Assembly (NCBI RefSeq): GCF_024199925.1
Contig: NZ_JANADR010000001.1
Coordinates: 4,402,001-4,466,000, forward strand
Source of the DNA: Bradyrhizobium sp. CCGUVB1N3
GTDB taxonomy: Bacteria; Pseudomonadota; Alphaproteobacteria; Rhizobiales; Xanthobacteraceae
Reading direction: 5' to 3'
Length of the DNA: 64,000 nt
The notes beneath the pieces are model-generated. The model was not told the DNA's origin and ran no database searches. It saw nothing but the letters and a program-made list of their open reading frames with translations. The position numbers were made by a program, and so were the translations under genes. Positions 13,822 to 63,431 of the stretch are shown in pieces. Each line of letters starts with the position of its first letter. The first letter of the stretch is position 1.

Positions 13822-13948
13822 GAATTTTCTCCGGCGATGAATGAAATACGAGCAGAGAGAGCGCGGCACACGCCGCGCGATGGTCTATGCCACAAGAGTC
13901 TTGCAGGTGCCAGATCGGACGCATCTAAAACCGAACGCGCGGAAAGAG

Positions 13949-14112
13949 CCCCTCACCCCACCCTCTCCCCGTAAGAACGGGGCGAGGGAGTGCGCGAGCA
14001 GTGCGTCCCTCACGATCGGAAATAGTAAAGACTGCCGAGCGCGCCTTGACCTCTCCCCGCCCTTCTGCGGGGAGAGGTCGGACTGCGAAGCAATCCGGGT
14101 GAGGGGCAAGGC
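13949..14112. repeat. composite repeat, halves A (13949-13990) and B (14048-14112)
   Basis: Half A starts CCCCTCACCCCACCCTC and holds a CTCCCCG/CGGGGCGAG hairpin. Half B holds GACCTCTCCCCGC/GCGGGGAGAGGTC and ends AATCCGGGTGAGGGGCAAGG. The same two halves, in the order B then A, bracket the DUF559 gene at 20258-20683. Confidence 0.8.
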
Positions 14113-14167
14113 ACGATGCTGACCCAGGCAGCGGTCCATCCGACTCGCACACAGGGAGAAGTACAAA

Positions 14168-14197
14168 CAAAAAGGCCCGCGCGAAGCGGGCCTTTTC
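14168..14197 (-). terminator. intrinsic terminator of the aspartate aminotransferase gene
   Basis: Read on the minus strand, AAGGCCCGC and GCGGGCCTT flank a short loop and are followed by TTTG, 20 bp past the stop codon. Confidence 0.85.
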
Positions 14198-14216
14198 GAT
14201 GTCTGTCGCGACAGCC

Positions 14217-20239: not shown

Positions 20240-20257
20240 TCCTGATCTCTCCTGACG

Positions 20258-20668
20258 TTAGGGACGCGCGGCTCTCTCACTCCCTCTCCCCGTCCTAACG
20301 GGGAGAGGGGTGGGGTGAGGGGCTGCCTCCACGAGTTCGGCTTGAATTGTGAGCAAAACGCCATCGATATTGCCGAGGACATCGTTGTTCCAGAAGCGAA
20401 GTATTTTGTAGCCCTTTTCTGTCAAGCGCGCGTCTCGGATCTCGTCCGCGGCGGATTCATTGTGTTGCCCACCGTCGACTTCGACAATGAGGCGCTTCTC
20501 GCGGCAGACGAAGTCGCAGATGTAGCCGAGGATCGGCTCCTGCCGCACAAACTTGTTGCCGTCGATGCGGCGGTTGCGGATGCGATTCCAGAGGACTGTC
20601 TCTGCGTCGGTTTGGTTCATCCGTAGTCGCCGTGCAAGTCGAATAGACTTTTCATCGTTGCTGCGCAT
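20258..20668 (-). CDS. DUF559 endonuclease-like protein bounded by repeats
   Basis: The 136-residue protein has the DUF559 (Vsr/restriction-endonuclease-like) core: NQTDAETVLWNRIRNRRIDG, KFVRQEPILGYICDFVC, LIVEVDGGQHNE (with the expected acidic residues) and GYKILRFWNNDVL. Its last 20 residues (PHPTPLPVRTGRG and on) are encoded by repeat half A, and its upstream edge abuts half B; a GTG at 20683 lies inside B. Its natural role is unknown. Association with palindromic repeats recalls REP-linked transposases, but this is inference. Confidence 0.85.
   Translation of the reverse strand: MRSNDEKSIRLARRLRMNQTDAETVLWNRIRNRRIDGNKFVRQEPILGYICDFVCREKRLIVEVDGGQHNESAADEIRDARLTEKGYKILRFWNNDVLGNIDGVLLTIQAELVEAAPHPTPLPVRTGRGSERAARP
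20280..20322. repeat. repeat half A, inverse orientation, overlapping the DUF559 3' end
   Basis: TCCCTCTCCCCGT, then TAACGGGGAGAGGG and GTGGGGTGAGGGG match the reverse complement of half A at 13949-13990. The DUF559 stop codon lies just beyond it. Confidence 0.8.
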
Positions 20669-20671
20669 TGC

Positions 20672-20733
20672 CTTGCCCCTCACCCGGATTGCTGCGCAAT
20701 CCGACCTCTCCCCGCTAAAGAGCGGGGAGAGGT
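20672..20733. repeat. repeat half B, inverse orientation, upstream of DUF559
   Basis: CCTTGCCCCTCACCCGGATT and the hairpin CCTCTCCCCGC/GCGGGGAGAGG match the reverse complement of half B at 14048-14112. It also abuts the stop codon of the DUF1501 gene. Confidence 0.8.
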
Positions 20734-23866: not shown

Positions 23867-23912
23867 CCCACGATAGCGTTCGTGAGATGCGAGGGCGCCG
23901 CATCCTCCCGTG

Positions 23913-24038
23913 TCGTCCTGGCGAAATCCAGGACCCATTACCCCAGGACACAGTTTGGGGAAGACTCGTCGTTCGGTACTACGACCATCCACAACCGAGG
24001 GATCACGCGGTATGGGTCCTGGCTTTCGCCGGGACGAC
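23913..24038. repeat. composite palindromic repeat with conserved ends and variable middle
   Basis: The left end is GTCGTCCTGGCGAAATCCAG followed by GACCCATTACCCC. The right end is GATCACGCGGTATGGGTCCT followed by GGCTTTCGCCGGGACGAC. A second copy, inverted and with a different interior, lies at 63310-63431; a lone hairpin of the same type lies at 34458-34483. Confidence 0.8.
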
Positions 24039-24064
24039 GTTGGGGAGAAAGCGAGCGTAACTCG

Positions 24065-26902: not shown

Positions 26903-26955
26903 GAAGAGTCTCCTGGAGTGGCGCGGCGAAGTAAGGGACGCAAATCGCTAGTTCT

Positions 26956-26983
26956 CCCTCGCCCCGCTCTTGCGGGGAGAGGG
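26956..26983. repeat. single hairpin of the CTCCCCG class
   Basis: CCCTCGCCCCGC and GCGGGGAGAGGG flank a short loop, like the hairpin of composite repeat halves A and B, in the gap between the transporter and LysR genes. Confidence 0.6.
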
Positions 26984-27100
26984 TAAAGTGCAGCACGCGT
27001 CGCGAAAAAATCGGCTTCAAGCTACGCCCATTCTTGTGCCTCGCTTGTGGAACTCACGCAAACTGAGTTATCTTGGCCTGGCATCAGCTTTCCTGAGGGT

Positions 27101-32093: not shown

Positions 32094-32133
32094 TGGATTC
32101 CGGGCGCGCGACTTCGTCGCGCCCCGGAATGAC
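32094..32133. repeat. palindromic repeat, ATTCCGGG class
   Basis: TGGATTCCGGGCGCGCGACT and the inverse end CGCGCCCCGGAATGACGA. Related elements lie at 42365-42447 and 46410-46500. A degenerate hairpin of similar kind (GGGGCGC/GCGCCCC) lies at about 31668-31686 after uvrB. The rest of the gap 31975-32338 holds no gene that I can support. Confidence 0.7.
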
Positions 32134-32338
32134 GACGGGAGAGATCGGCAGCTCCCGCACGCATTGCTGCGGCAAGTCCATGACGACACATCGCCTCCGT
32201 CCCACACGCAAAACCTGCACACACGCTTGTGAAGCGAGAGTGTGACCTGCCGGCTTGCCGATGCAGTGAACTTCACCTAACGATTTCGACGTTTCAATTA
32301 CGAGTTGCTGGGGTGGATATTTTAGAGGAGTGATAGAC

Positions 32339-33060: not shown

Positions 33061-33199
33061 GCCTCTCCCGCTTGCCTCTCCCGCTTGCGGGGGAGGTCGC
33101 GGCGCAAAGCGACGCGGGTGGGGCTCTCTCCACACAGGGAATCTCGATTGCGGAAAAACCCTCTCCCCCGCCCTCTCCCGCAAGCGGGAGAGGGCGGGC
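33061..33199. repeat. composite repeat, CTCTCCCGC class
   Basis: CTCTCCCGCTTGCGGGGGAG near the left end and CCTCTCCCGC/GCGGGAGAGG near the right end flank a variable middle. It lies after the papain-like gene. Confidence 0.7.
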
Positions 33200-33241
33200 A
33201 CCTGCATCGCTGTTCGCGGCCGTATCCAATCTCGTCGCGCC

Positions 33242-34374: not shown

Positions 34375-34457
34375 CGGGGCTCGCGATCCTTGCTATGCCG
34401 CGCTACGCCGGAGCAGCTCGCAACGGCGGCGGTTGTCCAGCGGGCTATCTCCTCATA

Positions 34458-34483
34458 GTCGTCCTGGCGAAAGCCAGGACGAC
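34458..34483. repeat. single hairpin, GTCCTGGCGAAAGCCAGGAC type
   Basis: GTCGTCCTGGCGAAAGCCAG continues to GACGAC: a near-perfect 26-bp palindrome, the same as the terminal arms of the composite repeats at 23913 and 63310. Confidence 0.7.
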
Positions 34484-40698: not shown

Positions 40699-40718
40699 CG
40701 TATCCTCTAACGCAGTGC

Positions 40719-40823
40719 GTAGGATGGGTTAGCGAAGCGTAACCCACCACCTTCTTGCCGTGACATGGTGGGTTACGCCGAGCGGACCGCGCTTCGCGCA
40801 GCCGCGGGGCTAACCCACCCTAC
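40719..40823. repeat. palindromic repeat, GGATGGGTTAGCGAAGCGTA class
   Basis: GTAGGATGGGTTAGCGAAGC at the left, two GGGTTACG/CGTAACCC arms in the middle and GGGGCTAACCCACCCTAC at the right. It is related to 48331-48417 and to the element at 3518. Confidence 0.75.
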
Positions 40824-42364: not shown

Positions 42365-42447
42365 GTCATTCCGGGGTGCTCGCGACAGCGAGCGAACCCG
42401 GAACCTCGAGATTCCGGGTTCGGTCCTGCGGACCGCCCCGGAATGAC
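42365..42447. repeat. palindromic repeat, GTCATTCCGGGG class
   Basis: GTCATTCCGGGG at the left and CCCCGGAATGAC at the right are perfect inverses; inner arms CGAACCCGGAA/TTCCGGGTTCG also pair. It is the same class as 46410-46500. Confidence 0.8.
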
Positions 42448-42452
42448 GCCGC

Positions 42453-46384: not shown

Positions 46385-46409
46385 ACACAACAGCAACGCG
46401 ATGATTTCC

Positions 46410-46500
46410 GTCATTCCGGGGCGGCTCGAAGAGCCGAACCCGGAATCTCGCGCCACAACCTCCAGATTCCGGGCTCTCGCTACGCGAGCCCCGGAATGAC
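46410..46500. repeat. palindromic repeat, GTCATTCCGGGG class
   Basis: GTCATTCCGGGGCGGCTCGA at the left and GCGAGCCCCGGAATGAC at the right are inverted; inner arms CCCGGAATCT/AGATTCCGGG pair too. It lies 26 bp after pgeF. Confidence 0.8.
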
Positions 46501-62789: not shown

Positions 62790-63290
62790 ATGTCCCTGCT
62801 CGAAAGCAATATCGATTCCCGCAGCCACCCGCTCTCGGTGGTGGAGGACATCGCCGCCAGCAACAACTGGCCGTTCGAACGTTCCGGCGACGACGAGATC
62901 ACGATCGTCTCGAAGGGACAGTGGACCGACTATCAGCTCTCCTTCACCTGGATGGGCGAGATCGAGGCGCTTCATCTGGCCTGCGCGTTCGACATGAAGA
63001 TTCCGATTGCGCGCCGCTCCGAGGTGCAGCGGCTGGTCGCCGCCATCAACGAGCAATTGTGGGTCGGGCACTTCGATCTGTGGACCCACACCGGCATGAT
63101 CATGCACCGCCAAGCCTTGATGCTGCCGGGCGGACTGACTGCCTCGACCGCGCAATGCGAGGCCATGCTCGCCGGTGCCATCCACGCCTGCGAGCGCTAC
63201 TTCCCCGCGTTCCAGTTCGTGGTGTGGGCGGGCAAATCGACCACCGAGGCGATGGACGCCGCGATGTTCGACACGGCAGGCGAGGCGTAA
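62790..63290 (+). CDS. YbjN domain protein
   Basis: The 166-residue protein starts MSLLESNIDSRSHPLSVVED. It has the YbjN fold related to type III secretion chaperones: NNWPFERSGDDEITIVSKGQ, YQLSFTWMGEIEALHLACAF, LVAAINEQLWVGHFDLWTHT and AMLAGAIHACERYFPAFQFV. Members are sensory or chaperone-like proteins of unclear role. In alphaproteobacteria it commonly precedes proC, as here. Confidence 0.88.
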   Translation: MSLLESNIDSRSHPLSVVEDIAASNNWPFERSGDDEITIVSKGQWTDYQLSFTWMGEIEALHLACAFDMKIPIARRSEVQRLVAAINEQLWVGHFDLWTHTGMIMHRQALMLPGGLTASTAQCEAMLAGAIHACERYFPAFQFVVWAGKSTTEAMDAAMFDTAGEA

Positions 63291-63309
63291 CGCACACCGC
63301 CTCCCCAAG

Positions 63310-63431
63310 GTCGTCCTGGCGAAAGCCAGGACCCATACCGCGTGATCTCACCGTATTGCACGACGCTTGTTGCTCTGCCCTCCATCCACTAGAACCACTC
63401 GGGGTAATGGGTCCTGGCTTTCGCCAGGACG
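63310..63431. repeat. composite palindromic repeat, inverted copy of 23913-24038
   Basis: The left end reads GTCGTCCTGGCGAAAGCCAG, GACCCATACCGCGTGATC; the right end GGGGTAATGGGTCCTGGCTT, TCGCCAGGAC. Both ends match the inverse of the copy at 23913, while the middle is unrelated. Confidence 0.8.

What the first reader, a model, noticed from the sequence alone, without database searches (positions are those of the whole stretch)
20258..20733. DUF559 nuclease-like gene framed by two halves of a dispersed repeat, possible self-spreading unit
Half B touches the gene start and half A encodes its C-terminus. The same halves occur without the gene at 13949-14112 but in the order A then B, as if that site were the junction of the B-gene-A unit. 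The protein has a Vsr/restriction-like fold and so could cut DNA. The situation recalls REP repeats and their RAYT transposases, with a different enzyme class. Seen: repeat identity and order. Inferred: mobility.
Basis: partly seen in the sequence, partly recalled or inferred. Interest (0 to 1): 0.7.

Follow-up and report, generated by a model that had tools for sequence, protein, structure and literature searches.

The report
Nuclease gene paired with dispersed repeats
A small gene for a likely DNA-cutting enzyme sits between two copies of a hairpin repeat that is scattered around the genome, and the same pairing turns up in many other bacteria and, in part, in laboratory E. coli, so the enzyme is a good candidate for what spreads a widespread repeat of unknown origin.

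Summary
The DUF559 gene (20258-20683, minus) lies between two inverted copies of a hairpin-plus-G-rich-tail repeat; one encodes its C-terminus. In the genus, 107 of 114 testable standalone DUF559 genes are bracketed by such repeats, against 0 of 13 motif-less fused paralogues and 0 of 108 shifted windows. Two wider samples give 64 of 80 and 18 of 29; Vsr genes 0 of 27. Similar genes share a repeat type, dissimilar ones rarely. Across 239 genomes of the phylum, repeat and gene co-occur (35 of 58 against 11 of 181). The repeat has the build of the published BoxC/PIT/intrastrand-triplex motif; one of its 23 listed E. coli K-12 copies lies 167 nt from ycjD, a DUF559 gene whose C-terminus is hairpin-encoded. 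The gene does not hop: each clade keeps to one or a few orthologous sites, while repeat pairs vary in presence. Cutting or dispersal of the repeat by the nuclease is inferred, not shown. Ten literature searches found no paper linking the two.

The parts
20258..20683 (-). DUF559 (Vsr/EDxHD-type PD-(D/E)XK) nuclease gene; likely start ATG at 20668 (alternative GTG 20683)
   Evidence: start choice is inference from the Met conserved in window-clade relatives
20435..20515 (-). core of the presumed active site (residues 57-83: invariant D57, E68, D70, H74, D80, R83)
   Evidence: invariant columns in a 45-sequence alignment; catalytic role inferred from the family
20669..20733 (-). repeat type B upstream of the gene: hairpin CCTCTCCCCGC..GCGGGGAGAGG, second small hairpin GGATTGC..GCAATCC, tail GGGTGAGGGG toward the gene
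   Evidence: (I1)
20256..20322 (-). repeat type A overlapping the gene's 3' end: tail CCCCTCACCCC then hairpin CCTCTCCCCG..CGGGGAGAGG
   Evidence: (I3)
20258..20323 (-). repeat-encoded C-terminal tail of the protein (about residues 121-141)
   Evidence: residues 121-135 pLDDT below 50
13949..14113 (+). gene-less A/B pair in the hairpins-inward geometry; varies in presence in the genus
26931..26984 (+). further type A-like hairpin copy
   Evidence: (I4)
33171..33200 (.). further hairpin CCCTCTCCC..GGGAGAGGG (start from the pattern hit; end approximate)

Best explanation
The gene is a repeat-associated nuclease: an enzyme, single-copy per clade and vertically inherited, dedicated to the palindromic repeat family that brackets it, playing for BoxC/triplex-type repeats the part that RAYT transposases are thought to play for GTAG-type REPs. 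Shown by sequence: bracketing, clade-linked repeat types, tails-inward geometry, genome-level co-occurrence, a gene that stays at its site while repeat pairs vary in presence, a nuclease fold. Inferred: the enzyme recognises the hairpin or the hairpin+tail (triplex-capable) structure when it extrudes or is single-stranded, nicks or cuts there, and repair or copying of the freed A/B pair seeds a new copy in other intergenic DNA. The dispersed 42-nt-spaced pairs would be gene-less derivatives of the gene unit. The bracket also supplies a GAGG stretch near the likely start and, in about half the genus genes, the protein's C-terminus.
For: Bracketing 107 of 114 in the genus vs 0 of 13 fused motif-less paralogues and 0 of 108 shifted windows; 64 of 80 vs 3 of 72 shifted windows; 18 of 29 vs 0 of 28 in the phylum draw; Vsr 0 of 27. 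Hairpins on both sides 82 of 116 and 52 of 78 vs 0 of 179; tail on the gene side only vs outer side only 80:1 and 64:10 (genus, up and down), 40:5 and 35:8 (wide set), with 61 further flanks showing both or neither. Gene pairs at least 60% identical at different sites share repeats in 89-95%, 50-60% identical in 24%, under 50% in 7-9%. Repeat hairpin at least 5 copies in 35 of 58 genomes with the gene vs 11 of 181 without, Fisher p 2.6e-17. Window-type repeat count is higher in genus genomes with the window clade or its sister clade (medians 40 and 81 vs 19; p=1e-4 together, 0.013 for the window clade alone) and unrelated to presence of a Y1 transposase (one-sided p=0.84). A 92-nt-spaced pair keeps gene 5'-end sequence (score 20, best of 500 shuffles 15). 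E. coli K-12: ycjD (PF04480 E=1.4e-49) next to BoxC copy 9 of 23, C-terminus in a degenerate BoxC-like hairpin. Fold: 3hrl and the homing endonuclease I-Bth0305I. A DUF559 protein of Caulobacter is required for an SOS response in cells lacking a cytosine methyltransferase (PMC12907096, passages).
Against: No biochemical link between any DUF559 protein and the repeat. Genomes hold the repeat without the gene: G002 has 108 copies and no PF04480 match better than 7.6e-16, the range of the fused type; 11 of 181 in the phylum draw; 7 of 20 listed E. coli records match only the BoxC part of the ycjD region. 23 of 58 genomes with the gene have fewer than 5 copies of the one hairpin pattern searched. 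16 of 80 and 11 of 29 loci in the wider samples are not bracketed at this threshold. The window's own gene scores 30, below the threshold of 34, because its two repeats are of different types. ycjD has no such repeat upstream and is not flagged by the flank test; the E. coli genome among the 14 controls of the PF04480 search did not ring, unexplained, perhaps a strain without ycjD. Co-occurrence is not corrected for phylogeny. The Caulobacter authors propose a mismatch-repair role instead.
Confidence: 0.6

Rival explanations
1. Structure-processing repair nuclease: the enzyme relieves hairpins or triplexes at the repeats during replication and is kept next to repeats for autoregulation; the repeats spread by another route (slippage, other enzymes).
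For: Vsr relatives are repair enzymes; PMC12907096 proposes a repair role for a Caulobacter DUF559 protein; BoxC motifs are linked to instability (PMC4666352 abstract); repeats persist without the gene.
Against: Does not by itself explain why each clade has its own repeat type or why most genomes without the gene lack the repeat.
Confidence: 0.2
2. Homing endonuclease that invaded repeat pairs: the gene sits in its own target site and can copy itself into empty pairs.
For: Fold of I-Bth0305I, a homing endonuclease; the gene lies in the gap of an otherwise standard A/B pair.
Against: Each clade occupies one or a few sites although many genomes hold tens of empty pairs or copies.
Confidence: 0.1
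3. Hitch-hiking: repeats accumulate beside any dispensable intergenic gene, so the bracketing is passive.
For: The site at 13949 holds three different repeat families in different species.
Against: Vsr genes, also small accessory nucleases, 0 of 27; inward tail polarity; clade-linked repeat type; co-occurrence.
Confidence: 0.06
4. One reading: B-gene-A moves as a unit, by a circular A-B junction.
For: Inverted bracketing; one outer end of the 13949 element resembles the gene's 3' end.
Against: Gene clades stay at orthologous sites; the other end does not resemble the gene's 5' end.
Confidence: 0.04

Closest known systems
REP/REPIN with RAYT (TnpA-REP, Y1/HUH transposase)
   Same: Single-copy, not self-mobile gene with REPs in its flanks and many dispersed REP pairs; where a genome has several RAYTs each is distinct (PMC3116915, passages). 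That each RAYT has its own REP type in inverted flanks is partly recalled.
   Different: Enzyme is a Vsr/EDxHD-type nuclease, not HUH; repeats lack the GTAG tag; the same genome also has a RAYT-like gene flanked by GTAG-bearing repeats.
BoxC / PIT / intrastrand triplex motif TM-ECO (PMC4666352: abstract and outline, passages with Table 1, section 18)
   Same: Hairpin CCCTCTCCC..GGGAGAGGG plus tail GGGTGAGGG, types A and B, close pairs all A+B, tails-inward or hairpins-inward.
   Different: The paper names no enzyme ('nuclease', 'ycjD', 'DUF559' 0 occurrences) and reports no association with transposons, phages or plasmids.
EDxHD homing endonuclease I-Bth0305I (PDB 3r3p; review PMC3943268, passages)
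   Same: Catalytic-domain fold (TM-score 0.73 by target).
   Different: This 141-aa protein has no extra DNA-binding region; no sign of spread of the gene itself.
Vsr very-short-patch repair endonuclease; Caulobacter VsrA (DUF559; PMC12907096, passages)
   Same: Vsr-like nuclease superfamily.
   Different: Vsr profile not reached (12.9 bits, cut-off 97.85); Vsr genes are not bracketed (0 of 27). Flanks of vsrA itself not examined.
CGTC-tagged palindromes (PMC3733652, passages)
   Same: Alphaproteobacterial REP-like repeats; stated there not to be associated with transposase genes.
   Different: Other sequence; seen here in most gene-less versions of the window site.

Membership tests
REP-RAYT system | enzyme is a Y1/HUH (IS200-like) transposase | tested here: not met
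   PF04480; no PF01797 among matches up to E=1; fold is Vsr/EDxHD type
REP-RAYT system | gene flanked by inverted copies of its own REP type | tested here: met
REP-RAYT system | GTAG tag at the base of the REP | tested here: not met
   repeat sequences; the RAYT-like gene of the same genome does have GTAG-bearing repeats
REP-RAYT system | gene single copy and not self-mobile; repeats dispersed as pairs | tested here: met
   by sites within one genus only
REP-RAYT system | enzyme cleaves the REP | not testable with these tools
   needs biochemistry
BoxC/PIT/triplex motif | C-rich/G-rich hairpin followed by G-rich tail able to act as third strand | tested here: met
   sequence architecture; triplex formation itself not tested
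BoxC/PIT/triplex motif | types A and B, paired A+B | tested here: met
   12 of 13 own-genome pairs; 5 of 5 E. coli pairs from the paper's table
EDxHD homing endonuclease | catalytic-domain fold and conserved acidic/His residues | tested here: met
   mapping of the residue motif is inference
EDxHD homing endonuclease | gene spreads into empty target sites | tested here: not met
   one or a few sites per clade in the genus sample
Vsr repair endonuclease | matches the Vsr profile | tested here: not met
   TIGR00632 12.9 bits against cut-off 97.85
Composite transposon / IS | unit moves with target-site duplication | tested here: inconclusive
   no clean duplication seen by eye at the 13949 insertion; gene unit not seen at new sites for the window clade

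The most novel reading that the evidence does not exclude
A whole superfamily of bacterial repeats, the BoxC/PIT/triplex motif found from E. coli to Bradyrhizobium and in other phyla, is a population of gene-less mobile repeats each driven by its own DUF559 nuclease: a second, independently evolved REP-type system running on a Vsr/homing-endonuclease fold instead of a HUH transposase, with structure (hairpin plus triplex-capable tail) as the recognition signal, and with YcjD as the E. coli engine of BoxC.
Probability: 0.5. Interest if true: 0.92.

Novelty: new variant of a known kind. Interest (0 to 1): 0.84.

Why it matters
How short palindromic repeats multiply in bacterial genomes has, to my knowledge, a candidate enzyme only for the RAYT-linked ones. 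BoxC-type repeats have been known in E. coli since the 1990s (passage of PMC4666352) without a named enzyme. A candidate nuclease that can be deleted and purified in a laboratory strain makes that question directly testable, and would give a function to a large family of unknown function (DUF559).

Tried and rejected
Considered and rejected: chance repeat (0 copies in reversed-pattern control); RAYT as the spreader of this repeat (count unrelated to Y1 presence, one-sided p=0.84; many Y1 hits are weak and near the cut-off); bracketing as a general feature of small nuclease genes (Vsr control); the circular-junction reading of 13949; clean insertion of ycjD in E. coli (in 3 of 3 fetched strains without it fabI is followed by a TetR/efflux operon). 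A first tail-polarity count used too strict a G threshold and left most flanks undecided (14:0, 14:2, 22:3, 10:1); the looser definition is. Phage records: 2 matches, both under 35% identity; plasmids: 44 records, all under 60% identity.

Literature: ten searches in an open-licence library gave no paper joining DUF559 or ycjD to REP, BoxC or triplex repeats. Limits: most subscription journals are missing; searches matched 1,015 and 4,397 papers, of which 25 and 40 were listed, so papers naming ycjD were not all seen; of the 14 papers holding DUF559 I looked at passages of three.

Rows dropped: loci too close to contig ends (2 of 116 and 1 of 14; 3 of 30); L223 and L225 left out. Not every genus match was fetched: 141 loci given to, 130 distinct. 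The 34 genomes are my choice from those 80 loci. An earlier count said the gene was present at 8 of 30 sites and the E. coli gap is 168 nt; the recounts are 6 of 30 plus one locus with the gene one position further on, and 167 nt.

Full report
WHAT IS THERE. The window (4402001-4466000 of contig 1 of a 10.4-Mb genome) holds a 141-aa ORF at 20258-20683 minus that matches DUF559 (PF04480, E=1.5e-37). Upstream of it lies a repeat of type B (20669-20733) and overlapping its 3' end one of type A (20256-20322), in inverted orientation. Each is a GC-rich hairpin (CCTCTCCCCG..CGGGGAGAGG) with a G-rich tail (GGGGTGAGGGG or, in type B, a second small hairpin and then GGGTGAGGGG); both tails point at the gene. 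The last 20 or so residues of the protein are repeat-encoded; residues 121-135 have pLDDT below 50 in the model, and relatives end differently here. In the genus, 54 of 103 genes with an inverted bracket at the threshold below have their stop codon at least 10 nt beyond the start of the 3' repeat.

THE REPEAT IN THIS GENOME. The pattern CCCCTCACCCN{0,30}CTCTCCCCG has 33 copies (control 0): 16 short A and 17 long B forms, making 13 close pairs, 12 of them A+B and 12 tails-inward. Nine tails-inward pairs have 41-42 nt between them, one has 31, one 92, and the gene unit 353. The 92-nt pair keeps sequence like the gene's 5' end (score 20 against at most 15 in 500 shuffles) but not clearly its 3' end (9 against at most 10), as a partly decayed internal deletion might.

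EACH STANDALONE PARALOGUE HAS ITS OWN REPEAT. The genome has five PF04480 matches. By eye, all four standalone genes are flanked on both sides by inverted palindromes, of four different types; the fifth, part of a 402-aa frame, is not.

GENUS SURVEY. 59 of 60 genomes have PF04480. I aligned 300 nt upstream with 300 nt downstream of the domain; a score of 34 lies above all 242 control scores (maximum 33). 107 of 114 testable standalone genes reach it (inverted or direct), 0 of 13 fused paralogues, which have lost the ExDGxxH-like motif, and 0 of 108 shifted windows. Of the seven misses, five (L002, which is the window gene, L054, L066, L138, L150) have hairpins on both sides by eye and two (L042, L154) on one side. 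The 116 genes form 12 protein clusters at 13 sites; the window clade (13 genes) is at one site, and only clusters 1 and 5 occur at more than one. Gene pairs at different sites share repeats in 89-95% if at least 60% identical (195 pairs: 127 within cluster 5, 48 within cluster 1, 20 between the window clade and its sister), in 24% at 50-60% (495 pairs) and in 7-9% under 50% (5172 pairs). So the clade-to-repeat link at separate sites rests on few independent clades.

WIDER SAMPLES. Of 80 named loci from several phyla, a few of them Bradyrhizobium, 64 are bracketed, against 3 of 72 shifted windows. Of 29 loci from an even draw of 239 genomes of the phylum (one of the own genus), 18 are bracketed, against 0 of 28. 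Vsr genes from the same draw: 0 of 27, maximum score 29. C-rich-arm hairpins lie within 220 nt on both sides in 82 of 116 and 52 of 78 loci, in 0 of 179 shifted windows. Where a hairpin is found, the tail is on the gene side only versus the outer side only in 80:1 (upstream, genus; both 7, neither 7), 64:10 (downstream; 13, 4), 40:5 (upstream, wide; 6, 8) and 35:8 (downstream; 4, 12).

CO-OCCURRENCE. In the 239-genome draw, 83 genomes match PF04480 at E<=0.001; I took the 58 at E<=1e-20 as having the gene. The hairpin CCCTCTCCCN{2,14}GGGAGAGGG occurs at least 5 times in 35 of these 58 and in 11 of the other 181 (Fisher 2.6e-17; outside the genus 29 of 52 against 11 of 181); the reversed pattern is zero in nearly all genomes, with a maximum of 11 in one. 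This is not corrected for kinship. Of 34 genomes that I chose from those behind the named loci, 27 hold the hairpin, 20 at least five times, including a Gastranaerophilales genome with 91. In the genus all 60 genomes hold the window-type repeat (1-118 copies, control 0); the 22 with the window clade or its sister clade hold more (medians 40 and 81 against 19; p=1e-4, window clade alone 0.013), but G002 has 108 copies with no PF04480 match better than 7.6e-16. Y1 transposase presence (34 of 60 genomes, many hits weak) does not matter (one-sided p=0.84). The RAYT-like gene of this genome is itself flanked by GTAG-bearing repeats, score 72: a positive control for the test and a hint that two enzyme classes serve two repeat classes.

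WHAT MOVES. At the window's gene site, between the DUF1501 gene and the next gene, 6 of 30 loci carry the DUF559 gene, one has it a gene further on, 21 lack it (interval 80-180 nt, mostly with CGTC-type palindromes instead), and in 2 the next gene was not found. At the 13949 site, 5 of 30 loci match the repeat pattern; of 19 regions that I read, those 5 carry the hairpins-inward unit (about 200-230 nt), 10 lack it cleanly, and 4 carry other repeat families at the same spot. So repeats vary in presence between orthologous sites while each gene clade stays put. Direction (gain or loss) was not polarised.

THE KNOWN NAME OF THE REPEAT. A text search for the repeat core led to PMC4666352, on intrastrand triplex motifs: BoxC, also PIT. 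Its 23 E. coli K-12 motifs have the same hairpin-plus-tail build, types A and B; its five close pairs are all A+B, four tails-inward (gaps 16-27) and one hairpins-inward (gap 59), the two geometries seen here. In the text 'nuclease', 'ycjD' and 'DUF559' occur 0 times. In MG1655, ycjD (1351407-1351760 minus) matches PF04480 at 1.4e-49; motif 9 (1351204-1351239) lies 167 nt beyond its 3' end, and by eye its last codons and stop lie in a degenerate motif hairpin. Against: ycjD has no such repeat upstream, my flank test does not flag it (18 inverted, 17 direct), and the E. coli genome among the controls of the PF04480 search did not ring, which I cannot explain unless that strain lacks ycjD. About 0.013 BoxC loci would be expected in 400 nt of intergenic DNA by chance, assuming 12% intergenic. 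3364 of 5426 E. coli genomes hold at least 80% of the region; the three strains without it that I fetched have an efflux operon there.

THE ENZYME. The closest solved structures to the model (mean pLDDT 80.7) are 3hrl, an endonuclease-like Neisseria protein (Foldseek E=4e-8), and the catalytic domain of the homing endonuclease I-Bth0305I (E=2e-4); Vsr comes at E=0.43. Residues D57, E68, D70, H74, D80 and R83 are invariant in 45 sequences. For a Caulobacter DUF559 protein, VsrA, passages of PMC12907096 report that an SOS response in cells lacking a methyltransferase depends on it: a member of the family can be genotoxic in vivo, though its authors propose mismatch repair.

READING. The best-supported account is a repeat-associated nuclease that works like RAYT but is not one: HUH fold and GTAG tag were tested and not met. 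Recognition, cutting and dispersal are inferred. My odds: about 0.95 that the association is real and general, about 0.6 that the enzyme disperses or processes its repeat in the way stated.

Noticed in passing
G000:C1:4572904-4573239 (L169): RAYT-like Y1 gene flanked by inverted copies of CGTAGGGTGGGCAAAGCGAAGCGTGCCCACC (score 72); a related GTAG-bearing copy is in the window at 40718-40748.
   Followed up: partly
window 32096-32137, 42365-42451, 46409-46500: CGTC-type palindromes (GTCATTCCGGG...CCCGGAATGACG), a published class said not to be linked to transposase genes (PMC3733652 passages). The same class fills most gene-less versions of the DUF559 site in relatives.
   Followed up: partly
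window 23903-24061, 34444-34480, 63287-63431: Another dispersed palindromic family, GTCGTCCTGGCGAAAGCCAGGAC, with no enzyme assigned here.
   Followed up: no
L005, L155-L165, L167: Fused DUF559 paralogue (about 402-aa frame) that has lost the ExDGxxH-like motif (for example ELVNPG instead) and has no flanking repeats; perhaps a domesticated, inactive copy.
   Followed up: partly
L347, L350, L352, L355 (orthologues of window 13870-14215): The interval after the aminotransferase terminator holds at least three different repeat families in different species: an insertion hot spot.
   Followed up: partly
L052, L059, L063: Some DUF559 genes sit in what look like tandem arrays, with direct repeats of partial or gene-less units beside the gene (direct scores 290, 139, 235).
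   Followed up: no
E. coli ETEC6, NZ_CP041627.1 1404818-1406175 (H1): By its annotation, IS1B interrupts the ycjD/DUF559 gene.
   Followed up: no
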